Below, one piece after another: positions 1,720-39,429 of a stretch of DNA of 64,000 bases (within the stretch, counting starts at the first letter, position 1; each line of letters opens with the position of its first letter). Made by a program: the position numbers and the translations under genes. Under the pieces are notes generated by a model. That model saw only the letters and a program-made list of their open reading frames with translations, was not told where the DNA came from and did not search any database. Origin of the DNA: Pteria penguin (taxonomy: Eukaryota > Mollusca > Bivalvia > Pterioida > Pteriidae). The stretch spans positions 60,327,739 to 60,391,738 of the forward strand of contig CM068584.1 of NCBI GenBank assembly GCA_035048485.1, given 5' to 3'.

Positions 1720-4700
1720 TTACTCTATTAACATTAGTGTACCTTCCTCTTTCAATAAATAAATCATGATTTGAAAGTCTGAAATTTGAAAGAATAGATA
1801 TATGGGATGTCGGTAGAGATTTTCGAAGATAGTATTGTAAAAAGTGGGTGTCAGGTAAGTATTTATATAATATAATGTTCCAAAAAATACAGACATTTCT
1901 TGAATAAAAATATCATTCATTCTAGTTTTACAAGTATGTAAAAACAAATGCTTATTATATGATGTCTGGGCAGTCCATATATACCCTAAGCCCACATTTT
2001 GTAAAATATCACGAACACTGCTCAACCGACTTTTGTGCATATCAATATTATCAAACATGTATGCATATAAACTTTTTAAAATACAATTGTCTGTGTTTAA
2101 AATCTTAAACCAATGTTTAATAATGCATAATTTTCTATACAGCTGCAACTGTAATCTTCCCAGTTCTGAGTATATCATAAAATTTGGTACATTATTTTTT
2201 AATTTAAGAATTCTTTTACAAAACTGAGTATGAACTTTCTCAATACTTTTCCCTTCAATAAAACCCCAAACTTCACAGCTATAACATAAAATGCTTCTAA
2301 CATATATATCAAAAACATGTAACTTTGATTCCACATTTAAATATTGGTTGTTACAAATATTTAAAATATTGAACATACATTTCCTTCCTTGCAAGGCTAA
2401 AATATTTTGAGCATGTGTAAATTTACCATTATACATAAGATTTAGGCCAAGATAACAGAAGTTATTAACAACTTCAATCTGTTCACCGTTATATGACCAT
2501 TTGCAATTATTGGGCACACGTCCCCCATTACGAAATACCACAATTTTAGTTTTATCAATATTGACATTCATATTCCATTTATTACTATATACATGTAAAG
2601 TATTCAACAGATTTTGCAGACCATCAATACTTTCAGAAAATAAAAGTGTCGTCAGCATACAGAAGCAAAAATAAAGAGATATCACGTAATTCTATAGATT
2701 CACAATTGTCATACATTAGTTCATTTTCAAAGTCATTGATATAAAGAGAAAATAATAACAGGGACAATCCCTCGCCCTGCATTAAGCCGGAAGACATTGA
2801 AGAAGGTAGACAACTCTGCACTTGATTTTACACAACATTTTACATTGCTATAAATAGATCTCAAAATGGTTAACATTTTACCATTAATACCTTGTTTACA
2901 TAATTTTGAAAAAAAGTTTACTTCTATTAATACTATCAAAAGCTTTTCTGTAGTCAACGAAACAGCAATATAATTTCTTTTTGTGTGATAATGTTTTGTT
3001 TATTAAACAACTAAGTGCAAAAATTGCATCTACAGTGCCATACCCAGGTCTAAATCCAAATTGGGCATCTGAGACAATACTGTATTTATCTGACCACTCA
3101 AGAAGACGGTTGTTTAATACAGATGTAAATAATTTTGATAAGCAGCTGACTAAAGTTATTCCCCTATAATTATTCGGGTCATTGAGATCTCCTTTTTTAT
3201 GCAAAGGAATAATGACACCTCTCGACCACTCTTCAGGGAAGTTACCTGATTGAAAAATTCTATTGAATAGTTGAGTTAGCAAAGTTAAAAATAAATCTTT
3301 AAACGTTGTAAAGTATTCGTTTAAAACATTGTCAATTCCAGCCGCTTTATTGTGTTTGGCTTTCTTTAATACATTTAAAACCTCCTCCTCAGTAATATCA
3401 ACATCTAGTTCATTGTAACAGCAAACACCAGTGTCAGTATCAACAATGCCATCAGTATTCTTATTTACATTAGACATATGTACATTTTCAAAATGGTTTT
3501 TAAAATCTGAAACAGAGAAGTGATGGTTCTTTTGTTTTTGTGTTTCTTAAAAATCCTATAACAATGCTTTGGATTATGTTTGCGCATGTGGTCAAATACA
3601 TTCTCTTGACTCTTCTCTCATACTGTTTGTATAACCTTTTATTCTCAACAAGGACATGTCTGTTATCCTGTGATCTATTGCTATTAAAACTGCGTAAAGA
3701 AGACTTGTAATGTTTGTACAGGTTTTTACAATGATTATCAAACCAAGGTTTGTTTGGATGCACAGATGGCTTACATTTAACCGATTTATTTGAAACAGAA
3801 AAGGTTTTACCACAAAAAGGACTAAAAACATCTTGTAAAAAAGTAGTGAGAGTTTTCACACAATGGTCGTTATCACAATCGGTGTTATTAATTACATTAG
3901 CAACATAGGCAAGCTCATCCCTACGTTCCAAAAGAACTGAGTGCATGTTTTCTATAGCATCAGGGTTCCATTTAAAGGTTGTATGTGTATTTTCAGTGGC
4001 GTTACAAATACCATTTGCAGAATTATCTGTTACTATATTTACAATTGCAGGACAGTTCAGTGTAAAAGAAACAGGTGCATGGTCAGAGAATTCGTTAAAA
4101 TCACATATACATAAATGGATAATATCTTTGAGAAAGCGTTCATCAACCAAGACATAATCAATTACACTTGAGCCCAAATGATTGTAAAATGTAAAGCGAC
4201 CAAGTTCATCACCACTTGTTCTACCATTGCACAGTCTTATCCCTGTCGCCTTACACAGTTCAATCAGCTTGCGCCCAAATGTATTGACAGTAGAATCTTG
4301 AGAGTTACGATTTGGCATTATTTCGTCAGAGACATAGTCAAAAACATCATCAAGTATATTTAACATCTGCCTATCAAGAAGGTCAGTGCTAATAAAATCA
4401 GATTTTTTCCCAACTCTGCTATTCAAATCCCCAGTAATAATAACTTTCCCCAACTGAGAGTATTCAGCAATACTGTTTTCAAGACATTCATATAAATCAG
4501 TATGATACAGGTTGTAATATACATTGTTTTCATGAGGTATGTAAGAAAAGCATATATATAATTCTGCAACGTTAACCCAAATCAAAGAATCTTCTATATT
4601 TTTTAATACATTTACCTTTGTTGTTAAGGATTTCTTATAAAGTATGACAATACCTCCCCCTTTCCCACGAGATCTTGGAAATGGTAAACATTCGAAATCA

Positions 4701-6516: not shown

Positions 6517-6672
6517 TGGTTGATTGGTGTTTTACGTCGCTTTCAACAATTTTTCAGTTATATCGCGACATGGAAGCAGGAGGTTACCAACCTCCTAAAC
6601 ATAGTGGCGCAACCCTGGAATCGAACCCGGATCGTCGGCGCCGCAAGCCAAGCGCTTAACCACGGCCCCCGC
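6517..6672 (-). mobile_element. SINE-B copy joined to the LINE 5' end
   Basis: On the minus strand: tRNA-like head (ggttaagcgcttggcttgcg, then ccgggttcgattcc), middle 'ggaggttggtaacctcctgc', and tail 'ttgttgaaagcgacgtaaaa' with caccaatcaacc. This is the same family as 24132-24301 and 39265-39429. Its outer end touches the CGTGGTAT target duplication directly (6673-6680) and its inner end meets the LINE 5' region. The head differs from the other two copies in its first about 10 bases. Confidence 0.85.
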
Positions 6673-6798
6673 CGTGGTATGCACAGCACATTAATGATCC
6701 CTCACTGATTCGGGTGGGTCCGTTGCAACGGTCAAAATGTGTATGCCCTGCACCAGGCAGAAGTCGTCACCATATACGTGAAATATTCGTGGTGTGAC
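6673..6798 (+). mobile_element. SINE-A copy, right half
   Basis: Continues the SINE-A interrupted at 1292: 'atccctcactgattcgggtg', 'gtatgccctgcaccaggcag', and the tail 'gaaatattcgtggtgtgac'. The first 8 bases repeat 1285-1292, consistent with target duplication on LINE insertion. Confidence 0.85.
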
Positions 6799-24131: not shown

Positions 24132-24301
24132 GTTGGTTGGTTGATTGGTGTTTTACGTCGCTTTCAACAATATTTCAGTTATATCGCGACATGGAAGCAG
24201 GAGGTTACCAACCTCTTAAACATAGTGGCGCAACCCGAGAATCGAACCCGGATCGTCGGCGCCGCAAGCCAAGCGCTCAACCACTACACCATGCCTGCCC
24301 C
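24132..24301 (-). mobile_element. SINE-B, full length with 14-bp TSD
   Basis: On the minus strand: ggggcaggcatggtgtagtg head, GGTTCGATTCT B-box-like, 'ttgttgaaagcgacgtaaaa' and a (aacc/aatc) tail. Target duplications TTTTTTCATATGTG at 24118-24131 and 24302-24315 flank it exactly. Confidence 0.92.
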
Positions 24302-27139: not shown

Positions 27140-28696
27140 ATCTCTCTTTGGTCATATAGTGATTAGTAGTCCGTTTTTGGATTTAGCTTTTTTTTTGTGT
27201 AGCACGTGCGAGCCATGTTTATCCTCCGTTAGGCGATGTGTTTATATCGTTTATCATCCATCTGATGCCACGATGTAAGTTGTTATTATTATTTCTAAAA
27301 TGTATTTTTGTGCACTTTAACATCTTTGTGAAATAATTGCATGGTTATTTTTGATGCATAATGATGCATAGAAGTTTTCTAAAAATAGATTGTTTACATA
27401 CAGCAACACATATTGTGTACTGAACTGTATACATGTACAGTTTTCAGTTTTATGATGCTAATTGTTGGTATACTCTATGAATTATTTTCAGATATTGAAT
27501 TGTTGATTAGACGATATTTACATTGTCTGATTATAGAATTATTTTGATAAGTTTTGGTATTTCATGATTTTTAGATTAATTGGTTTATGTACTAGAATGT
27601 ATTATTATAAATCAGACTTTGCTAATTTATTATCATGCTGTTTGAATATGTAACAGGCTCGAAACCCACAACGACCAAATATACAGGTCTACACACACCA
27701 ATACATGTACTTGCAAATATAAACAGAAGCTAGTGTGCATAGACTCATACCCTAGCCATTACAGATGGTCAAGTCTATTTTATATACCCTGCTTCTATGT
27801 AAGAATGTCCGCAAGGAAGCTAAATAAGTGAGACTAGTGCAAAGTGCAATGATTTATTATGATATATTTACATAATGATAATATTTACAATTCCCGGAAC
27901 AACCTTAATACATTGTTATATCGTAACTAATACCGACCTTTAAGAAGGTGGTTAAAGCTCAGTTCGAAGTGAACCTTAGCTAAGCCGGGCGAAAGTGAGC
28001 GAACACGCCTTTAAATACCAAATCTAAAATGTAGTTGACTAATGAAATTGATTGTTATATCTGTTGAAGGGATTTAAATGCCTGTGTATTAGTTACTTGG
28101 AAAATGAAAGTAGATGCGAAAGTTCGATTTCATTACAAATATATTGAATGTGATTGTGTGATTATGTGTTGTTTTTGTATATTTGTATCAATAAACCAGT
28201 CACTATAATAAACATGGACTTTTTCTTGGACTGTCAGTTCCTGACGATTAAAGTTATTTACTGTGTTTATTCTTGATGTGGGTAGGCCAGGTTTAGCTGC
28301 GCTGACATTAGGCAGCGACACTGTGTATTCCCTCCGGGTCGCCCGTAGGCGCTCAAATCCACAGTTCAGAGGGGTTGAAAGAGTACATAAGCGGCGCTGA
28401 CTTCGGCGTCCGCGGCAGTGTGTTATTAGACTTCTTACGACACTTATTATCTTGATTTTATATTGTTCAACTTTTTTTCCTGCTAAAATATAACTTGACC
28501 CACTAAGGTGGCGACATCTACTAAATTTGCATTGACCCAAAATTGCTCGTGAACTACAATTCGGGAAGCTACGACTGTTATCTGCTCAAGCAACAACAAT
28601 TCAAAACTGTGTACGACTTGGTACGTTTATTGTCCTTGAAGATGCAGTAAGAAGCAACGAAAATAAGAAAATATAATATGTAGTTCCCTACTAAAG
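27140..28696. other. no recognisable gene
   Basis: A/T-rich with one minus-strand open stretch (28540-28133, 135 codons, basic, no motif). Nothing here is supported as a gene. Confidence 0.35.
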
Positions 28697-28869
28697 TGTG
28701 ACCGGGATATGGTACAATATATTTATAGTAAAGAAATCGATATACGACACAGAGAGTAAGAACTAATCGACTTACCAGAGCACGAGCAGAATAAGTCCTT
28801 TTTTCAACGAATACTCGAGCGCATGCATCGACTGTCCTGCTCGACTCTCTGCTGGTTCGTTCCACTACA
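28697..28869 (-). repeat. LTR (3') of the small element
   Basis: 173 bp, TG...CA ends on the minus strand. Pairs with 30068-30535 after removal of the SINE (175 bp). Confidence 0.85.
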
Positions 28870-28883
28870 CCCCTCCCCCTTTT
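28870..28883 (-). promoter_or_regulatory. polypurine tract of the small LTR element
   Basis: Minus strand AAAAGGGGGAGGGG directly before TGTAGTGG of the 3' LTR. This is the usual site of plus-strand priming. Confidence 0.8.
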
Positions 28884-30048: not shown

Positions 30049-30061
30049 ATCCTCGTCGCCA
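30049..30061 (-). promoter_or_regulatory. primer-binding site, tRNA-Ser(GCT)-like
   Basis: Minus strand TGGCGACGAGGAT, six bases inside the 5' LTR. From memory, the 3' end of animal tRNA-Ser(GCT) is ATCCTCGTCG plus CCA, a full 13-base complement. Confidence 0.7.
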
Positions 30062-30067
30062 GTAAAG

Positions 30068-30535
30068 TGTGACCGGGATATAGGACAATATATTTATAGT
30101 AAAGATTGATTGATTGATTGATTGATTTTTGTTTAACGTCACACCACGAATATTTCACGTATATGGTGACGGCATCTGCCTGATGCAGGGCATACAAATT
30201 TTGACCTTTGCAACGGACCCACCCGAAGCAGTGAGGGATCTTTAACGTGCCATGCATACCACGACACGGGGCCTCGGTTTTTACTGTCTCATCCGAAAGA
30301 CAGGACACCGGCATGACCAGAGCGGGACTCGAACCCCGGCCTCCCGATCAGGAGTCCGACGCGATACCACTAGGCCACGCCGGCTTTTATAGTAAAGAAA
30401 TCGGTATACGATATAGAGAGTAAGAAGAACTAATCGACTTACCAGAGCACGAGCAGAATACGTCCTTTTTCAACGAATCCTCGAGCACATGCGCCGACTG
30501 TCCTGCTCGACTCTCTGCTGGTTCGTTCCACTACA
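30068..30535 (-). repeat. LTR (5') of the small element, with SINE inside
   Basis: Matches the 28697-28869 LTR on both sides of a SINE-A insertion. Confidence 0.85.
30106..30385 (-). mobile_element. SINE-A, full length with 13-bp TSD
   Basis: The best-preserved SINE-A in the window. Minus-strand head 'gccggcgtggcctagtggta', GGTTCGAGTCC, and a (gatt)n tail. Target duplications TTTATAGTAAAGA at 30093-30105 and 30386-30398 lie inside an LTR, so the SINE is younger than the LTR element. Confidence 0.93.
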
Positions 30536-30574
30536 CCACAATAATCCAACAGGGTCATGATTTTTAGCAGCTAT

Positions 30575-30816
30575 TGTATTATATCCGGTATATAATCATT
30601 TATAATACAGTGTTCCCAAACCAATACTTCGACAGACATTCTCTTGAACATAGATAACTAGTAGTAGTTAAGTATATATATAACTTACTATGAAGTCGAG
30701 CCAAGAGAGCTGAGATGAACGTCTGTACTGGGGAACGAAGGGAAGAGCTGCGGGATTCACGTGATATGCTGACGTCACTTCATGTGGTTGATATTCCGAT
30801 CCCGAATATTGCAACA
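30575..30816 (-). repeat. 3' LTR of the TatD-carrying element
   Basis: 242 bp. Shares 'ccaaaccaatacttc.acag', 'aacttactatgaagtcgagc' and 'tgacgtcacttcatgtg' with the 5' LTR. TG/CA ends on the minus strand. Confidence 0.88.
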
Positions 30817-30825
30817 CTCCTCCCG
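30817..30825 (-). promoter_or_regulatory. polypurine tract
   Basis: Minus strand GGGAGGAG directly upstream of the 3' LTR TGTTGC start. Confidence 0.7.
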
Positions 30826-31126
30826 TGTTTGAAAAAGGACGCCCTCCACCAACACAAAATAAAGCAGCAAACAACGGATTGAAAATCCGCAAATATGTTT
30901 AACTCGTAGAAAAATAAGAATGAAAGAAATTAGCCACCACCCGTACCACATAACTAACCATAAACTAAAGCCAAAGAGAAATCGATAAACGAAAGAGACG
31001 ACAATACTTCATATTACTATCTAACTACATATTTCATTAAAAACTATATCACACACAAATGCCATATATATTGAACTTCATCTTTAAACTATACCATCAC
31101 CCTAAAACATGTATATTACATTGAAG

Positions 31127-31127
<1 letters not shown>

Positions 31128-31191
<64 letters not shown>
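31128..31191. repeat. (TA)n microsatellite inside the LTR element
   Basis: About 30 TA units. The plus-strand frame through it (IYIYIY) is an artefact. Confidence 0.95.
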
Positions 31192-31197
<6 letters not shown>

Positions 31198-31226
31198 ACT
31201 TTCAACTCTATCTCATACGCCAGACA

Positions 31227-33060
31227 TTAGCATTGCTTATATAGATTCAGACCATTCGCTCTGGTTAGAGAAACAACCTTCTCGGGAGACATATGCAAAT
31301 GCTGAGCAACATGATAGGCAACTTCCCCGATATATGCTGGAGTATTCACATCTTTTACCCACCTGGAGAAATATGGAGAATCGGTTTCCAGAAGTAAGCG
31401 ATCTTTCGGAACAGCTAGTAATCCACCAACCTGTTCTTTGAAAAACCCTTAACTGCAGACGTGAAGCCAAAGTAAGAGTTAGGGTAGTCACGAAGCCATT
31501 GACTTACGAGCTGGCAATCTCCAGTGAAGCAATGATACTTGGAGATATTGACGAGAATCGACTTTTCCATGCATAAGTTGCATGCATCGAGAACTAACCC
31601 CTAGCGCCAACTTGTCTTCAGAAGAACCACGAAGATGCAAAACAATAGGCTTGTTAACTCGAGCCATAGAGAAAACACGAAGAAAAGTATGTTCATGACG
31701 CCTCCACAAGGAGATAGCAACAGAATGATCTAAACCTATTTCTCCTAATGCGGAAATCCGACGATTACTCATTAATTTACTCAGTGCATTAAACTTATTC
31801 TCTGAAAGTTCATCAATATGTTTTGGATGAACACCAACAGAAATGAACCATGACGAAGCGAATTTCAGATGCTATGGATGTGATCTAGGTTCACTGAAGA
31901 TAATAACGCCAGAATCAACTTCAACCGAAAACAACGGCTTTCCCTTGAACGAGAGACGAGAAACAATATCTTCAGGGACTTTATCAGTCGATTTCCATAA
32001 TTTCAGAGACGTGCGATCCCAGTGGAAATGACTATCAAAAGCAGGGATCAGTTTATTATCGTCTTGGGCAATATCAGGCGGCGAAGTAGATACAATACGT
32101 TTAGAATGATATGTAGTGATATGCAGGTCTTCAGCAAGAGGATCATTATTGTTCTCATCCGAAGGGTCAAATTCATCTATCACGATCATACCATCGTCTG
32201 GATCCTGATCTTCTAATTCAACAAAACCGTTTTTACGGAAAGATATCCGCTGACAATCATCACTTTGATAACAGGATGGAAAGCCAACGCCAATGCAATA
32301 AGGTTGCTAAAGAGTTCAAAGGATGAAGGCTAAACTTCTCTGGTACATCCCAGGAAGCATATAGATAAAATCCGCGCATAATTTTTTCCAACTCTGGGTG
32401 AATCTCAGAGCGATTAGGAACTTCAGACGAACTGTTAATAAAATTCACGATATCCATCAGAGTTCCTTCGGGACCAATAATCGCATGTGCCAAGGACTTG
32501 AGTGAGTTCAAACGCAAATTATATGTCTAGAGAGTTTGATGATTTCTTTACATCGGATATCTCCTGAAGAAATTTGGGAAGATGATAATATATAAAATGA
32601 CGTTTTAGTTTCTTATCCCGAGTGTTACAGCCAGGGATAGGGCAAACAGAAGATCCCAATCTACGAACAGACGAGGATAATGATGATGGACACGCAGAAA
32701 TTCCCGACTTGCGATCAGACGAAGAAGATAATGATGATTTGGTTAACTTAAGTTTCTTCTCTGGAACTATTGTTTCTACTATTTCTGTCTTCCGATAACG
32801 ACGTTTATTGTTTACTTTCTCTTATTTTCTTTTTATTCACTGCTCCTCTATTATGACTATCTGGATTATTCTGATGATTATCTGAATTATTTTGACTATA
32901 ATTATCCGGATTATGAGCCACCTTTTCCTCCTCACCGACGACTGAAAGAGAAGGACTGGTATGCGAGATTTTCGCAGAATGAGATATTCTACTATGGCGA
33001 AGATATAATGACTCTCCGTTGTAGGTTGAATAATATCCATAGGGGTAAGGTTGAAATAAT
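31227..33060 (-). pseudogene. zinc-finger + TatD-type metal-dependent DNase, frameshifted
   Basis: TatD enzymes are Mg-dependent exonucleases or endonucleases with a TIM-barrel fold. On the minus strand: a low-complexity Ser/Asn region, a zinc-finger-like CPIPGCNTRDKKLKRH with a second His (32644-32590), and an acidic linker. The TatD core follows: DSHFHWD (HxH, near 32030), SVGVHPKH (near 31840), ALGEIGLDHS (near 31750), KPIVLHLRG (near 31650), KYHCFTGDC (near 31530), LLETDSPYFS (near 31390), ending NLYKQC at TAA 31227-31229. All the family's metal-ligand positions (HxH, E, H, H, D) can be read. Frameshifts near 31565 and 31430 and several stops break it. It lies between the LTRs downstream of pol. 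Confidence 0.82.
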
Positions 33061-33064
33061 TCCC

Positions 33065-33190
33065 TATTACTCCCATCAAAACATAATTATTATTAATAAT
33101 ATTAATATAATATAATGATAATAATAACATAATATATTAATAATAATATTACATAATATATTAATAATAATATTAATGTGATCATCAAAG
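33065..33190. repeat. (AAT)-rich trinucleotide stretch at the pol break
   Basis: AAT/ATT-rich low-complexity sequence directly after the RT FDD motif, where RNase H and integrase would be expected. Confidence 0.85.
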
Positions 33191-34094
33191 TTCTTACCAA
33201 TCACAAGAATATCATCAAAGAATGCTGAAACGGTATTCCATTGTAATCCTCTTCAAATTCATAATAATAATAATTTAGTGAACCACACATTGCCCTCTAA
33301 TGCATCAATACACTCTTCAATTAGGGGTAAAGGGAATACATCTTTTTTAGTAACCACATTTAATGCACGGTAATCAATACTCCACTGGAGGATACCATCA
33401 CGTTTACGTATTAAGACAGGTGCTGAAGCCCATTCAGAAATAGAATTTTCAATCACACCTGCTTTCAACATTTTTGCAGATGTTTTTCTTTCTCTTGAAC
33501 AAAGCATAACGGAGTCCGACAGATCCTTTCTTTGATTGGTTCCGCATCACCCGTGTCAATACTATGTTCAATAGCAGCGATATCCCCAATATCACATTCA
33601 TCTTTAGCAAATATATTTGCAAATTCATATAATAGGTTCTTCAGTGCCAAAGTCTCTTTCTGTTTTAGATTCGTACAAGATCTTTCATATAAATCTAGTA
33701 TATGGGAGGGTAATTCAATGTTTTCACATAGCTTAAATTTACTGACATGTATAGGACTTTCATTATCTACATGTACCTCTTTTTCAATTTCAAATGCATG
33801 TCCTATTGTTTCATTTGCATGCAAAATAATTTTCTGATCACTACAATTTACAAAGCTAATCACAGGACTTGACTTTTCAGCATGTAATGATCTAGGTACC
33901 ATAACCCTTTGCACACTAGGTTCAAAAATATATTCAGATAGGTATTTACTGATAGCACAAGCAATTCGTAATACGGAAAAAGCTGGAACAGTGGTTTTCT
34001 TAATAACTGTTACTTTGGCTACTTTATCCCTATCCGATAACTTGTTACTAACTGTAAATGGTATCTTTTGTTTACTAAAATTTAGATATCCCAC
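33190..34094 (-). pseudogene. Gypsy-like pol: linker and internally deleted reverse transcriptase
   Basis: 34094-33465 is the pre-RT linker ending EHSIDTGDAEPIKERICRTP. After a frameshift at about 33490, the fingers read AGVIENSISEWASAPVLIRK and IDYRALN, then PLPLIEECIDALEG. After WFT (about 33262) about 65 residues of palm are missing. The next recognisable motif is FFDDILVIGKNFDDHI (about 33215-33190), which has the catalytic Asp pair. Nothing of thumb, RNase H or integrase follows. Known role: copies element RNA into DNA; this copy cannot. Confidence 0.8.
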
Positions 34095-34488
34095 CTAAAT
34101 TAATTGTGACACTATGTTTTAGTAGAAAATCTAGTCCTATCAACATATCATCTTCTATTGGAGCCATGTAAACCCTTTCATTGAATTTCTGTTTACCTAT
34201 TATGAAAAGACAAGGTTTCAACAAATGACCTTTCATTTTCATATCTCGTCCCGCTGTTTGCATAGTAACTTCTTTCATAATTTCAGGTTTAATAATAAAA
34301 TTATTAAATAATTTATCTGAAATTAATGTAACTTCAGCCGCAGTATCAATAACGGCTAGAAATTTATTACCACACATTTCGACTGGGATTCGAATCATTG
34401 ACTGAGACGTTAACTGACAAATGATTATATCAGTGGAATCAGCTGATTGATTTTCTATAGATAAACAGTCTTGATAGGCCAAGGTCAT
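34075..34488 (-). CDS. retropepsin-like aspartic protease domain
   Basis: Open for 137 codons. FLAVIDTAAEVTLISDKLF has the catalytic D-T-A box (A where many retropepsins have G; DTAA also occurs in Gypsy elements). DDMLIGLDFLLKHSV is the second conserved motif (ILGxDFL type). It overlaps the pol linker frame by 20 bases and starts 22 bases after the gag stop, so a frameshift would be needed to make one polyprotein. Cleaves gag-pol in the family. Confidence 0.85.
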   Translation of the reverse strand: MTLAYQDCLSIENQSADSTDIIICQLTSQSMIRIPVEMCGNKFLAVIDTAAEVTLISDKLFNNFIIKPEIMKEVTMQTAGRDMKMKGHLLKPCLFIIGKQKFNERVYMAPIEDDMLIGLDFLLKHSVTINLGGISKF

Positions 34489-34509
34489 ACTGGATCGAGT
34501 TTAAGCCCT

Positions 34510-36473
34510 CTAGCTCGACCCCTCGGAGTTTGTTGGCGACCTAGATCTTTCCCTGAATGTAACTTTTCTGTTATATTGGGATGGGGCAGATCTATGTTGC
34601 TCAAACTGACTAGGGCAGTCTTTCTTAAAATGTGATTTGCTACCACAAGAAAAACACCCTTGTTGCACCGGAGAGGAAGACCTATTTGGTGACCTTACAG
34701 GTGATCCGCTTCTTGACCCCAGGATCTTATCTAGTTTTTTACAAAGATCCCTCATTTCAGACCTCATTTCTCCCATTTGTTTTTCTAACGAGTCAAGTCT
34801 ATCAGTTACACTAGATTTACGAGAATCGTATCTCGCCTGTCTTACTCGCCTGTCAGACTCTATACCAGCAAAGTCAAACTTAGATTGTTTAACCTGAACT
34901 GGCTTATGGTCAACTTCACTGCCACTAGAAACCACTGATGGTCTGATTTCTTTATAACCTTCAGTATTGAAGATAACCTGATGATAATACTGGTAACATT
35001 TAATTCTGTCCAGGATATCCTCAACCGTTGTATTGGGAAGGTTTGCAGCGAATTGACCTGCAGTCCTGTCATGTAAACCATGACATATTCGTTGCGTGAT
35101 CTGACTACTTACATATGCATCTGGCAAATCGTGGAATGCATATGTTGACATTTGCACAACCCTGTCGGCCCAATCCTCGAGAGTCTCGTCAGGATTTTGT
35201 CTAAGGGAATTGAACTTCAACCTTGCAGTTTCAGGTATTTCCCTTAAACCGAACCGTTTCTGTAGTTTATGCATGCTTTCGGTGTAAGTTAAGTCCAAAT
35301 CACGCTGTGTAAGAGTTGCAAAGAACTCACTTGCTTTCCCTTCAAGGCAAAAGCACAAGTAATCTTTGCATTCTCTTGGAGTCCAATTCTTTAGTTCCGC
35401 ATATCGCCGGAATTTACCTTCAAAAGCATTCCAATTATCCTTACCATTATAAGATAAGGTCTTAGGAATATTATACTTTTCAGTCTCTTCATATTCCGGA
35501 CGCCTTCGACGGAAATACCTAGGACGTTGTTGATTTCTATGATCATTATAATAATCATCATAGTCATCTTCATTGCCACTTATTTGATCATCATGTCGAT
35601 ATACATGATGTCTACCTGGTCTCTGACGTATACCCCTAGGAGAAGGAGGTTGACAATATTCATCAGATTCCTCTTCATAGATGGAATCATCAGAATTTGT
35701 TTCATGTTATCTCTTCTCTCCTAGAAGTTGACGCTTTGTAAGGTCTGGCCTTTTGTTTGACTTGTGTGACCCTTGACCTTTGACCTTTATGATTAGCATC
35801 ATGTTTTTGATGATAAGGATCCACATGTTTGCTAGGATCCCTATCAAATGAGCCACGTCTTGTGTAATCAGACTTTCCTAATTTACCAGATTTGCAGGGT
35901 CTATTGTTACCCACATCTTTAGGTAAATGTGTCCACTTTTGTATAAGGAATATCCCTAGGTTGGGATTTACCCTTAATCTGAGACGTCTTTGGTCTTACT
36001 GCAGGTTCGAATTCTTCTCTTCTCAATTTTCTCTGAGAACTCGAATCCTTTTTATTTTTATTGTTAATAACGGATGATACGTTTTCCAGAGTTCTTTGAA
36101 ACTCGTAAATTTCATTGACCTGTTTCTGATCCATGAAACTTTCCTGTTCAAATTCTTCTGGATTTGTCATCCGCTTTTCAGTCTCCTTAGGGACACCAAA
36201 AGTCTGATTTTGTTCCTCCACCCCCTCTGTTTCATGAATTAATGTATCAGTGGATGTAGGTTAACTATGGCTTTCAACAAAATCAATCGAATCAATTAAC
36301 TCTTCAGTTATATTAATATATTTGATACATTGAAGTTCTTCCAAGCCAATATTACCAAACTTGTTACGGAGATCTATTATTTTATCCGCTATTTTTCCAC
36401 CAATACCAGGGAGGGTCATTAATTCCTTTTTGCCAGCAAAGTTAATTTGTACTCTTTCTTGTTTTGCTGCCAT
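34510..36473 (-). pseudogene. HhH-gag polyprotein: ComEA-like HhH, capsid-like region, zinc knuckle
   Basis: ATG at 36473. Residues 9-50 read VQINFAGKKELMTLPGIGGK and IADKIIDLRNKFG, a ComEA-type helix-hairpin-helix. TAA at 36261-36263, then the same frame reopens (PEEFEQESFMDQKQ). Two frameshifts (about 35917 and 35703) lead to the main gag frame, open from about 35703 to 34510. That frame holds an acidic/aromatic stretch, a retrotransposon-gag core (WNAFEGKFRRYAELKNW, FGLREIPETARLKFNSLRQ, LEDWADRVVQM) and a CCHC knuckle CFSCGSKSHFKKDC. Gag forms the particle and binds RNA; the HhH module would add DNA binding, which is inference. Confidence 0.8.
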
Positions 36474-36479
36474 TATTAT

Positions 36480-37628
36480 TATATATTATTTACGTTTAAA
36501 TACAGTAAACCGCTTATATAATTATGACGGTAAACTATAATAACGCAATATAATATTAATAAAATAATAATACTAATCACAATATATAACGGTATAGTAT
36601 CTCACCTAACCGCAAAATATGGTTAGTATGACAATATAGTAATATTGTAAGAATTAATAAATAACAAATGTATATATTTATTATATATACAAATAAATCA
36701 TAAACCGCTATAGTCTTTGACGGTATATATATATATCTTTGTATATTAAAACTAGATGATTGATTTTTGATGGAAAATAATCAATCATTAACAAAAGTAC
36801 ATGTTAATTTACAATAAACAACTTTACATATGATATAAATATTATATCACAAAATTAACTAGAGGTTGTACGATTAAATCAGAATTTAAACTTAGACAGG
36901 TAATTATCCCGCTCAGAGGTTTCCCAACAATGAAAATTAACTTTGGCAGATTTATATATCTAAACCAGAGGTATGACTTAAACTTGGTTAGAAATATCCA
37001 CCACAGAAGTTTTCCAAAGTCAGAAATTAACTTACACGGAAATCATACCCATCCCAGAGGTTTTCTGTCAATAATCACACTTTAAACTTAGAAAATATTG
37101 TAAAATAATACAATATATCACCCCAAAGTGCCAAGAAATCAACCGCTATTTGCTACCTACCGGAGATAAGTTTTTAAAAACCAATCATGCATGACATAAG
37201 CATGTGGTAAACTATCCGGGCAGACAAATGCAAATCTTTCACGGTTCAATGATTTTAGAAATTTCACGATCGATAAAGAAAAAATGAAAAAAATTACTTA
37301 AATAATCCAAAAATTTATCCACATTACAACCGCTATTTGCAATCTACAGGATCTAAAACTATACATGCAAGGCCTATGTTAACTTGATATCATTTCATGT
37401 AGTTTAGTCCGAATAGAAAATGCAAACATTCACGGTTATAACAAATTTTGAAAATAAATCAATAATAATAACGAATCACATACAAGATATGTATTTGTCT
37501 CTCAATAAAGCTGTATCCGCAAATTAAACAAATTGTTTAACGGAAACTGACTTTTCAGCTCAAATTGAGTTTGGCGGGAAATTTGAACTCCACGTGTTAA
37601 TGTCGGTGTGCAACGGGTTCGAAATTAG
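36480..37628 (-). other. 5' leader of the LTR element with internal repeats
   Basis: A/T-rich, no ORF. Three units with 'cagaggtttcccaa' / 'cagaagttttccaa' / 'cagaggttttctg' lie at about 36910, 37005 and 37055. Two longer units of about 150-190 bp start with 'caaccgctatttgc' at about 37141 and 37328, and both carry an 'atgcaaa..ttcacggtt' phrase. They could be packaging or transcription signals; that is a guess. Confidence 0.5.
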
Positions 37629-37639
37629 TCGCAGCGCCA
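37629..37639 (-). promoter_or_regulatory. primer-binding site, tRNA-Ser-like
   Basis: Minus strand TGGCGCTGCGA, four bases inside the 5' LTR. The plus strand reads TCGCAGCGCCA, which fits the acceptor end of a tRNA-Ser with a GCUGCGA acceptor. Upstream GGGTTCGAA at 37615-37623 also matches a tRNA T-arm at the right distance, so complementarity may extend. Confidence 0.6.
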
Positions 37640-37643
37640 TTAT

Positions 37644-37893
37644 TGTATTATATCATGTATATAATCATCTATAATACATTGTTTCCAAACCAATACTTCT
37701 ACAGACATTCTCTTAAACATAGACAACTATGAGTAGTTAAATGTAACTTACTATGAAGTCGAGCTAAGAGAGTTGTTGCAAATACGTCTGTACTGGTGGA
37801 GATCTGGAAACCGAAGGGGAAGAGCTGTGGGATCCACGTGATGTGTTGACGTCACTTCATGTGATTGGTCTTCAGATCCTGAATATTACAACA
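37644..37893 (-). repeat. 5' LTR of the TatD-carrying element
   Basis: 250 bp, pairs with 30575-30816. The minus strand starts TGTTGTAATATT and ends ATAATACA. Confidence 0.88.
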
Positions 37894-38002
37894 CTGCGTA
37901 GAAATGAACAGATGTATGCGAAATTGTTTTCATATCAGTTTTCAGGCGTTGGAATAGGTGTTCCCTTAAGTACCTTAATACTTTTTCCGGTAGATAAGAA
38001 AA

Positions 38003-39264: not shown

Positions 39265-39429
39265 TTGGTTGATTGGTGTTTTACGTCGCTTTCAACAATA
39301 TTTCAGTTATATCGCGACATGGAAGCAGGAGGTAACCAACCTCTTAAACATAGTGGCGCAACCCGGGAATCGAACCCGGATCGTCGGCGCCGGAAGCCAA
39401 GCGCTTAACCACTACACCAAGCCTGCCCC
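39265..39429 (-). mobile_element. SINE-B, full length with 10-bp TSD
   Basis: Same family as 24132-24301. Target duplications TAATGATATG at 39255-39264 and 39430-39439. Confidence 0.92.

What the first reader, a model, noticed from the sequence alone, without database searches (positions are those of the whole stretch)
30575..37893. LTR retrotransposon carrying a TatD-type DNase between its LTRs
Two matching LTRs, a PPT and a PBS bracket HhH-gag, retropepsin and RT, and also a downstream zinc-finger motif plus a TatD fold in which HxH, E, H, H and D ligand positions can all be read. I know of no described LTR retrotransposon with a TatD nuclease. It might process element DNA ends, act on competing DNA, or be a passenger gene. 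Intact motif set despite frameshifts suggests it was once under selection.
Basis: partly seen in the sequence, partly recalled or inferred. Interest (0 to 1): 0.88.

Follow-up and report, generated by a model that had tools for sequence, protein, structure and literature searches.

The report
LTR retrotransposon clade carrying TatD nuclease
The window holds a broken copy of an animal LTR retrotransposon whose less damaged relatives encode, as a third gene after gag and pol, a zinc-finger-like protein with a TatD-type nuclease domain that natural selection has kept intact, a combination that I did not find described.

Summary
On the minus strand, 37893-30572, an LTR pair with PBS and PPT encloses HhH-gag, protease, a truncated RT and a frameshifted ZnF-TatD block. 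This copy is dead and pol-deleted, but it is not a one-off. In the same genome all 10 LTR pairs found (40 of 62 candidates scored) enclose TatD, four of them about 10.7 kb long. The reference copy has gag, PR-RT-RNaseH-IN-PHD pol and, 18 nt after pol's two stop codons, an ORF3 with a complete TatD domain, 100% identical LTRs and a 4-bp TSD. Integrase relatives at 53% identity or more have TatD downstream in 21 of 30 cases; below that, 1 of 119. A diverged family (TatD 46% identical) also lies between LTRs. Purifying selection is clear (dN/dS about 0.1-0.3). Homologues occur in molluscs and hemichordates; four match PHD-pol proteins in contig length. The nearest precedent is bdelloid LTR elements with DEDDy-exonuclease or GDSL-esterase ORF3s, so this is a new variant of a known kind. 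A sister element carries a similar ZnF-helical ORF3 with an SGNH-like domain in TatD's place, suggesting a modular slot. Function (probably end processing of element cDNA/RNA) is inferred, not shown.

The parts
37641..37893 (-). 5' LTR (TGTTG...CAATA)
   Evidence: also found by the LTR search at G000:C5:60365379-60365632; 93% identical to the LTR of the reference copy
37628..37639 (-). primer binding site TGGCGCTGCGAC; its complement reads like a tRNA 3' end with CCA. The tRNA was not identified
   Evidence: sequence
36261..36485 (-). helix-hairpin-helix region, N-terminal part of gag (same open frame as gag in L048, separated here)
   Evidence: Pfam HHH_3 E 2.9e-9; 90.5% identical to L049:2651-2872; for L048
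34510..35706 (-). gag (Retrotrans_gag/PNMA-like capsid, CCHC knuckle), 398 aa open
   Evidence: gag-pol block 36105-33271 is 97.1% identical to the reference copy
34075..34500 (-). retropepsin
   Evidence: gag-asp_proteas E 8.8e-7
33259..34094 (-). protease-RT linker and N-terminal part of RT; RT is cut here
   Evidence: alignment to the reference copy ends at its position 2874
33167..33264 (-). short further RT fragment
   Evidence: 90.3% identical to reference positions 3014-3116
33080..33177 (.). AT-rich tandem repeat at the join where the rest of RT, RNase H, integrase, PHD and the start of ORF3 are missing
32519..32821 (-). ORF3 remnant with C2H2-type zinc-finger pattern (CPIPGCNTRDKKLKRHFIYYHLP); read from the pattern, no Pfam family matched
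   Evidence: the C, C, H, H positions are invariant among the 15 ORF3 proteins aligned
32260..32526 (-). ORF3 helical middle domain remnant
   Evidence: alignment to the reference copy; domain seen in the model of homologue P0004
31227..32306 (-). TatD nuclease region (with the linker before it), in four open pieces 31872-32306, 31488-31871, 31415-31600, 31227-31448; a stop codon and frameshifts break it
   Evidence: Pfam TatD_DNase; tblastn to other copies
30817..30824 (-). polypurine tract GGGAGGAG
   Evidence: sequence
30572..30816 (-). 3' LTR, from a diverged subfamily: 78% to the reference LTR, against 93% for the 5' LTR
37894..37897 (-). target-site flank GCAG
30568..30571 (-). target-site flank GCTG (3 of 4 match; TSDs are 4 bp in other copies)

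Best explanation
The feature is a dead, pol-deleted and probably chimeric copy of a Ty3/Gypsy-type LTR retrotransposon. Its clade carries a third gene (ORF3) in the position where retroviruses have env (recalled): N-terminal helical domain, C2H2-type zinc-finger pattern, helical middle domain, C-terminal TatD metal nuclease. SHOWN: ORF3 belongs to the element (between LTRs in every pair found), it recurs downstream of diverged integrases of the genome, its catalytic residues are conserved, and it evolved under purifying selection. INFERRED: the TatD domain was captured in an ancestor of the clade and then inherited with pol. INFERRED, mechanism (about 0.35 on its own): ORF3 is made from its own start codon after pol, binds element RNA/cDNA through the zinc finger and helical platform, and its TatD domain trims 3' ends or removes RNA from RNA:DNA hybrids during or after reverse transcription, so that cDNA ends suit integration. 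E. [quoted passage not shown] A similar ORF3 holds an SGNH-like domain in a sister element, so the enzyme is more likely an accessory than part of the core replication machinery.
For: Reference copy C5:48181422-48192158: LTRs 100% identical over 255 bp, TSD ATAC, pol with PR, RVT_1, RNase H, H2C2, rve and PHD, ORF3 with TatD_DNase E 1.1e-39. 10 of 10 LTR pairs found enclose TatD, four of them 10.6-10.8 kb long. Integrase hits of 53% identity or more: TatD 1-6.5 kb downstream on the same strand in 21 of 30; 43-52%: 1 of 27; below 43%: 0 of 92; controls: upstream same strand 1 of 149, opposite strand 1 of 149. Diverged family on C3 (integrase 63%, TatD 46%): LTR pair 253 bp, 98.0% identical, flanked by GAGC on both sides, enclosing both. 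Selection on TatD: nine loci S 22, N 13, omega 0.18, p 5e-7; three loci of a diverged family S 31, N 30, omega 0.29, p 1.8e-6; broken window lineage omega 0.59, p 0.03. Ligands H, H, E, H, H, D and zinc-finger C, C, H, H invariant in the 15 proteins aligned, and invariant or at least 90% conserved in the 37 aligned. In the model of homologue P0004 the TatD part has a mean pLDDT of about 94 and matches TatD structures. Other species: four TatD contigs share their exact length with a PHD-pol contig (4 of 28 under 40 kb; shifted control mean 0.135, maximum 2); TatD and integrase identities co-vary over five pairs (r 0.84; only the true labelling of 120 reaches it).
Against: No activity, expression or translation was tested. 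9 of 30 close integrase hits have no TatD found; all nine lie in frames under 500 aa, and one of them (C2:73623592) is followed by the SGNH type. Most of the 98 TatD places used have no integrase hit listed nearby; only 150 of 1597 integrase candidates were scored, and deletion derivatives exist. The aligned homologues were chosen by me (15 of 53 and 37 of 52); narrow patterns for five TatD motifs are all present in 29 of 53 proteins. Related copies are not independent, so the p values are rough. An SGNH-like domain in the same slot of a sister element argues against an indispensable role in cDNA processing.
Confidence: 0.8

Rival explanations
1. Passenger: a host TatD gene was picked up by, or inserted into, this one copy by chance and has no role in the element.
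For: The window copy is broken, and TatD-like hits are frequent in this genome (89 matches, 144).
Against: All 10 LTR pairs found enclose TatD; diverged families have it at the same place; purifying selection; ORF3's first ATG lies 18 nt after pol's stop codons, and the frame has no introns.
Confidence: 0.03
2. Same anatomy, other job: the TatD protein acts against the host or competitors, for example by degrading invading or rival extrachromosomal DNA, clearing R-loops or damage at the insertion site, or blunting nucleic-acid sensing.
For: Accessory position after pol; an SGNH-like domain in its place in a sister element, as expected of accessory rather than core functions; TATDN2 acts on R-loops (PMC12709183, passages).
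Against: No direct evidence. A nucleic-acid-binding platform and a nuclease fit a role on element nucleic acid equally well.
Confidence: 0.3
3. Non-catalytic role: ORF3 is a structural nucleic-acid-binding protein (packaging, transport, env-like role) and the TatD fold serves as a scaffold.
For: The bdelloid authors consider auxiliary or env-like roles for enzymatic ORF3s (PMC5408684, passages); a similar platform occurs in TatD and SGNH versions; some homologues miss one or more narrow TatD motif patterns (24 of 53).
Against: Metal ligands invariant in the 15 and invariant or at least 90% conserved in the 37 aligned proteins; a scaffold would not need them.
Confidence: 0.1
4. ORF3-type TatD is basically a multicopy host gene family (TATDN2-like) that retroelements have captured many times.
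For: Some homologues carry database names such as TATDN2 (Haliotis, P0195) or other non-element names, and no element context is known for most of the homologues.
Against: In the tree 80 of 83 rows taken as element-type form one side of a branch (SH-aLRT 98), apart from bacterial and fungal TATDN2 rows (quick tree, no bootstrap, no vertebrate TATDN1-3 rows); the platform is shared widely; rows sharing a contig length with PHD-pol are spread over that clade; pol and TatD distances co-vary.
Confidence: 0.12

Closest known systems
Bdelloid rotifer LTR retrotransposons (Juno, Vesta) with enzymatic ORF3s (PMC5408684; abstract and passages seen)
   Same: LTR elements with gag, pol and a third ORF coding for a hydrolytic enzyme: DEDDy 3'-5' exonuclease or GDSL/SGNH esterase
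   Different: The nuclease here is TatD (metal-dependent TIM barrel), with a zinc-finger-like and helical platform; other animal phyla; here purifying selection is seen, whereas the authors report no significant departure from neutrality. 'TatD' occurs 0 times in that text.
Orchid Ty3/Gypsy elements with an AlkB-type m6A demethylase ORF (PMC9289625; abstract and one section seen)
   Same: Ty3/Gypsy lineage with a captured nucleic-acid enzyme in an extra ORF
   Different: Different enzyme, plants; activity was shown there
CR1/L2-type non-LTR retrotransposons with esterase and PHD domains (a reference title in PMC5408684, and a listing, PMC3905857; neither paper read)
   Same: Same enzyme class as the SGNH-like domain of the sister element; a PHD domain also occurs
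   Different: Non-LTR elements; [quoted passage not shown]
TATDN1-3 and bacterial TatD/YcfH
   Same: Same Pfam family, ligand motifs and fold
   Different: Element TatDs form their own branch against the bacterial and fungal rows tested and are fused to a zinc-finger-like/helical platform

Membership tests
Ty3/Gypsy-type LTR retrotransposon | Paired LTRs with short target-site duplication | tested here: met
   Window: LTR pair, flanks GCAG/GCTG, 3 of 4 alike. Other copies: 4-bp TSDs GTAG, CATG, CATG, ATAC, ATAC, GAGC
Ty3/Gypsy-type LTR retrotransposon | gag, then pol in the order PR-RT-RNaseH-IN | tested here: met
   Met in the reference copy. The window copy has gag, PR and part of RT only
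Ty3/Gypsy-type LTR retrotransposon | PBS next to the 5' LTR and PPT next to the 3' LTR | tested here: met
   Sequence; primer tRNA not identified
Ty3/Gypsy-type LTR retrotransposon | RT phylogeny within Ty3/Gypsy | not tested
   No RT tree with named clades was built; assignment rests on domain order and Pfam RNase H type
TatD metal-dependent nuclease | TatD Pfam domain over its whole length | tested here: met
   PF01026 positions 1-253 of 253 in three open ORF3s, E 8.2e-40 to 1.3e-39
TatD metal-dependent nuclease | Metal ligands HxH, E, H, H, D | tested here: met
   H628, H630, E724, H759, H793, D844 invariant in the 15 sequences; that these are the ligands is recalled
TatD metal-dependent nuclease | TatD fold | tested here: met
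   Model of homologue P0004: ranks 1-14 are TatD-family structures or a related metalloprotein (3gg7), target-normalised TM 0.69-0.79
TatD metal-dependent nuclease | Nuclease activity | not testable with these tools
   none
Bdelloid-type DEDDy ORF3 | Third ORF downstream of pol inside the LTRs | tested here: met
Bdelloid-type DEDDy ORF3 | DEDD exonuclease fold | tested here: not met
   Only TatD_DNase in Pfam; TatD structures in the fold search
Host TATDN1-3 gene | Groups with TATDN rows in a tree | tested here: inconclusive
   Apart from fungal TATDN2 rows and bacterial TatD; vertebrate TATDN1-3 were not in the tree
Retroviral env-like ORF3 | Transmembrane or fusion domains | not tested
   No transmembrane prediction was run; Pfam lists only TatD_DNase

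The most novel reading that the evidence does not exclude
In a large animal (mainly mollusc) clade of Ty3/Gypsy elements the env position holds a modular accessory protein: a zinc-finger-like and helical platform carrying an exchangeable hydrolase, a TatD nuclease in one branch and an SGNH-like domain in its sister. The TatD version would be a retroelement-encoded 3'-end or hybrid-processing nuclease, separate from RNase H and integrase, kept by selection since before the diversification of molluscs.
Probability: 0.4. Interest if true: 0.85.

Novelty: new variant of a known kind. Interest (0 to 1): 0.72.

Why it matters
LTR retroelements are thought to do their DNA work with RT, RNase H and integrase (general knowledge). 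A selectively kept extra nuclease points to a step in their life cycle, or in their conflict with the host, that those enzymes do not cover. It also offers an explanation for part of the TatD-domain proteins of molluscs that databases list as uncharacterised or under host-gene names: they may be retrotransposon genes. The apparent exchange between a nuclease and an SGNH-like domain on one platform makes the role of accessory ORFs testable by comparison.

Tried and rejected
Chance passenger: rejected by the LTR census and selection. Viral relatives: two scans of IMG/VR found none (ORF3: no pattern match, alignment: 24 pattern matches, none confirmed). Retroelement domains inside the ORF3 homologues: blastp of the reference gag and pol against 53 proteins (the ORF3 query and its 52 homologues) found only P0017 (Magallana gigas), whose N-terminus resembles the protease-RT linker. 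The window's dN/dS alone says little: the window lineage is decaying (omega 0.59). In one search changes at codons differing by more than one base were not counted; L042 (TatD with two stops) and L047 were left out of the nine loci; the seven window-lineage loci include segmental duplicates. Window, L031 and L044 share the 5' flank (87-93%), window and L031 the 3' flank (99%), L032 and L033 both flanks (99-100%); the 3' flanks of L032, L033, L044 and L046 are also alike (95-97%). For L045 and L048, with one LTR hit each, that script compared sequence inside the element, which says nothing about their flanks. Rows dropped: one search used 82 of the 89 matches and one search used 98 of the 144 (further fragments of the same places left out); of the integrase list 149 rows were used (a second fragment at C5:12029099 left out; more matches were not listed). 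(19 of 30, 0 of 27, 0 of 92) used the short TatD probe and is superseded. In one search, candidates with a TatD match under 190 residues were dropped, leaving 108 rows.

Papers (10 searches): no listed title or start of abstract describes a TatD gene in a retrotransposon; others (202 papers, 15 listed; 9,872, 3 listed) were not selective for TatD. The one paper with TatD, retrotransposon and LTR concerns soybean flowering (listing only). Full-text finds for 'TatD' in PMC6238403, PMC8905726, PMC2774666 and PMC5408684 gave 0. PMC12709183: passages. PMC9289625: abstract and one section. The library lacks most subscription papers, and repeat databases were not searched, so the element may be catalogued there without comment.
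Full report
What is in the window. The element lies on the minus strand, 37893-30572. Its LTRs begin TGTTG and end CAATA; they are 81.7% identical over 263 gapped columns. A PBS follows the 5' LTR after one base and a GGGAGGAG tract precedes the 3' LTR. Between them, piece by piece: HhH, gag with CCHC, retropepsin, the start of RT, then an AT-rich repeat, a zinc-finger-pattern remnant and a TatD region in four open pieces. The copy is broken: TatD by a stop codon and frameshifts, pol by loss of everything from within RT to the end, plus the first ~295 residues of ORF3.

The window copy looks chimeric. Its 5' LTR and gag block are 93% and 97% identical to the reference family, but the TatD block is 85% and the 3' LTR 78%. 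It also shares its 5' flank with loci near C5:43.8 and 45.4 Mb and its 3' flank with the former, so this insertion was probably copied later by segmental duplication.

The family in the same genome. The window lies in an 838-Mb assembly at C5:60327739-60391738. A TatD fragment of the window finds 89 matches. Eighteen of the places were fetched at 10 kb. The reference copy, C5:48181422-48192158 (L049 and L038), has LTRs identical over 255 bp, TSD ATAC, an HhH region followed by gag, a pol frame of 1340 aa with PR, RVT_1, RNase H, H2C2, rve and a C-terminal PHD finger, and an 894-aa open frame with a full TatD domain. pol ends TAA TGA; ORF3 has its first ATG 18 nt later in the same frame. In six places the frame that holds TatD is open over 795-894 aa.

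Does TatD belong to the element? Searching by LTR, not by TatD, gave 40 scored of 62 candidates. They form 10 pairs, all enclosing TatD: four of 10.6-10.8 kb, four of 7.1-7.3 kb, one of 4.5 kb, one of 3.2 kb (the script paired C5:12152432 wrongly and counted 9 of 10, while one search shows that it pairs with 12156668). Of the 20 unpaired LTRs, the window's among them because its 3' LTR is too diverged for this list, 9 have a TatD match within 9 kb on the same strand; of the other 11, two have a TatD fragment beside them, leaving 9 lone LTRs. Searching by integrase (151 matches, 149 rows used; 150 of 1597 candidates scored): with TatD 1-6.5 kb downstream on the same strand, 21 of 30 at 53% identity or more, 1 of 27 at 43-52%, 0 of 92 below; upstream and opposite-strand controls gave 1 of 149 each. 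A diverged family on C3 (integrase 63%, TatD 46%) has its own LTR pair, 98.0% identical over 253 bp, 10.3 kb end to end, flanked by GAGC. Three further diverged TatD loci (L023, L026, L030) have gag sequence 38-42% identical to the reference upstream.

Deletion derivatives. Four copies (L035, L036, L039, L042) share one junction that removes HhH, gag, PR and the whole Pfam RT match, yet show no likeness in their flanks; TSDs were read for three (GTAG, CATG, ATAC), and two of the four have LTR pairs 100% identical. They keep RNase H, integrase sequence (broken in some) and ORF3 sequence, so they probably moved with proteins supplied by other copies (inference). A 3.2-kb copy (L047) keeps little but the ZnF-TatD end, its TatD frame broken.

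Selection. Single-base codon differences among nine loci with an unbroken TatD domain: 22 synonymous, 13 non-synonymous, omega 0.18, binomial p 5e-7; three lineages only: 20 and 7, omega 0.10; diverged family (L022, L026, L029): 31 and 30, omega 0.29, p 1.8e-6; window lineage (seven loci, duplicates included): 22 and 43, omega 0.59, p 0.03. Relatedness makes these p values rough. Pairwise values vary: 0.05-0.14 for the more distant pairs among the nine loci, up to 0.89 for pairs a few changes apart. Integrase and its C-terminus had too few differences for a useful comparison (0.24-1.50 where defined).

Beyond this genome. ORF3 residues 440-894 find 52 proteins among 7996 scored candidates, those with an organism name all from molluscs; the TatD domain alone finds 168 (120 listed), including hemichordates and MAGs of bivalve symbionts, probably host contamination (inference). 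Scores fall from above 120 bits for this family to 92 and below for fungal TATDN2 and bacterial TatD. In a quick tree of 108 domains, 80 such rows sit on one side of a branch with support 98; three more that I had listed as candidates (P0051, P0052, P0053) fall outside it. Narrow patterns for five TatD motifs are all found in 29 of 53 proteins; the rest miss one or more, some being partial or degenerate. Integrase-PHD relatives number 1675 (120 listed). Four TatD contigs share their exact length with a pol-PHD contig in that list (8316, 11370, 16046, 9450), where shifted lengths give 0.135 on average; contig names are not shown. Over five pol/TatD pairs identities co-vary (r 0.84, reached by 1 of 120 labellings, the true one; of the two pol candidates for 9450 one was used).

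Structure. In the model of homologue P0004 (762 aa, mean pLDDT 75.8) the N-terminal helices, the zinc finger with middle domain and the TatD barrel (mean about 94) are confident, the linkers not. The barrel's best PDB matches are bacterial TatD/YcfH, TATDN3 and TATDN1.

An exchanged module. As a control I read 5 kb from within the integrase of a sister element onward (46% identity, C7). The rest of its pol shows no PHD in Pfam, and its next ORF (401 aa) has a similar zinc-finger pattern and middle domain (29.4 bits against the ORF3 profile, best of 500 shuffles 4.4) but ends in an SGNH/GDSL-like domain (PF00657 E 0.0015, below Pfam's cut-off). Relatives of that ORF lie 1-6.5 kb downstream of 9 of 29 integrase hits of 43-53% identity.

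Mechanism. Inferred only. E. coli TatD trims 3' ends of single-stranded DNA and RNA, and TATDN2 attacks RNA in R-loops (PMC12709183, passages). The simplest role is processing of element cDNA or its RNA remnants before integration. Action on host or competing nucleic acid is nearly as likely.

Known or new. Third ORFs with enzymes are known in LTR elements, above all in bdelloid rotifers, with a DEDDy nuclease or a GDSL esterase (PMC5408684). A TatD nuclease with this platform, its retention in a clade and its selection are in none of the papers that my ten searches listed, as far as titles, abstract starts and the finds named show. Hence: new variant of a known kind.

Noticed in passing
L052:1140-2342 (G000:C7:21382139-21383341): Sister Ty3/Gypsy element whose ORF3 has a similar zinc-finger/helical platform with an SGNH/GDSL-like domain in place of TatD; more than 50 further matches to the SGNH part alone lie elsewhere in the genome.
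   Followed up: partly
P0101 (JGI metagenome protein, contig of 6471 bases): Pol-PHD protein of the same kind with a Tpt1/KptA RNA 2'-phosphotransferase domain (PF01885, E 4.2e-43) between integrase and PHD.
   Followed up: no
G000:C5: 29 of 40 LTR hits of the family lie on C5, which is about 8% of the assembly; partly segmental duplication.
   Followed up: no
G000:C5:34166920-34174118 (-) and 34174468-34185304 (+): Two elements of the family stand head to head about 350 bp apart.
   Followed up: no
G000:C10:10942835-10947486 and C10:11522151-11536738: Clustered, weak, interrupted TatD-like matches, at about 1.4-kb steps in the first cluster, perhaps a duplicated host TatD gene.
   Followed up: no
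window 28685-28871 and 30056-30537: Other repeat blocks 1.37-1.67 kb apart just beyond the 3' LTR, 90-98% identical.
   Followed up: no
window 6606-6677, 24227-24299, 39355-39427: Three tRNA-Arg-like sequences on the minus strand with similar bodies; possibly tRNA-derived repeats.
   Followed up: no
P0052: A 1085-aa protein with B-box, TatD and Schlafen AlbA_2 domains, outside the element TatD branch.
   Followed up: no
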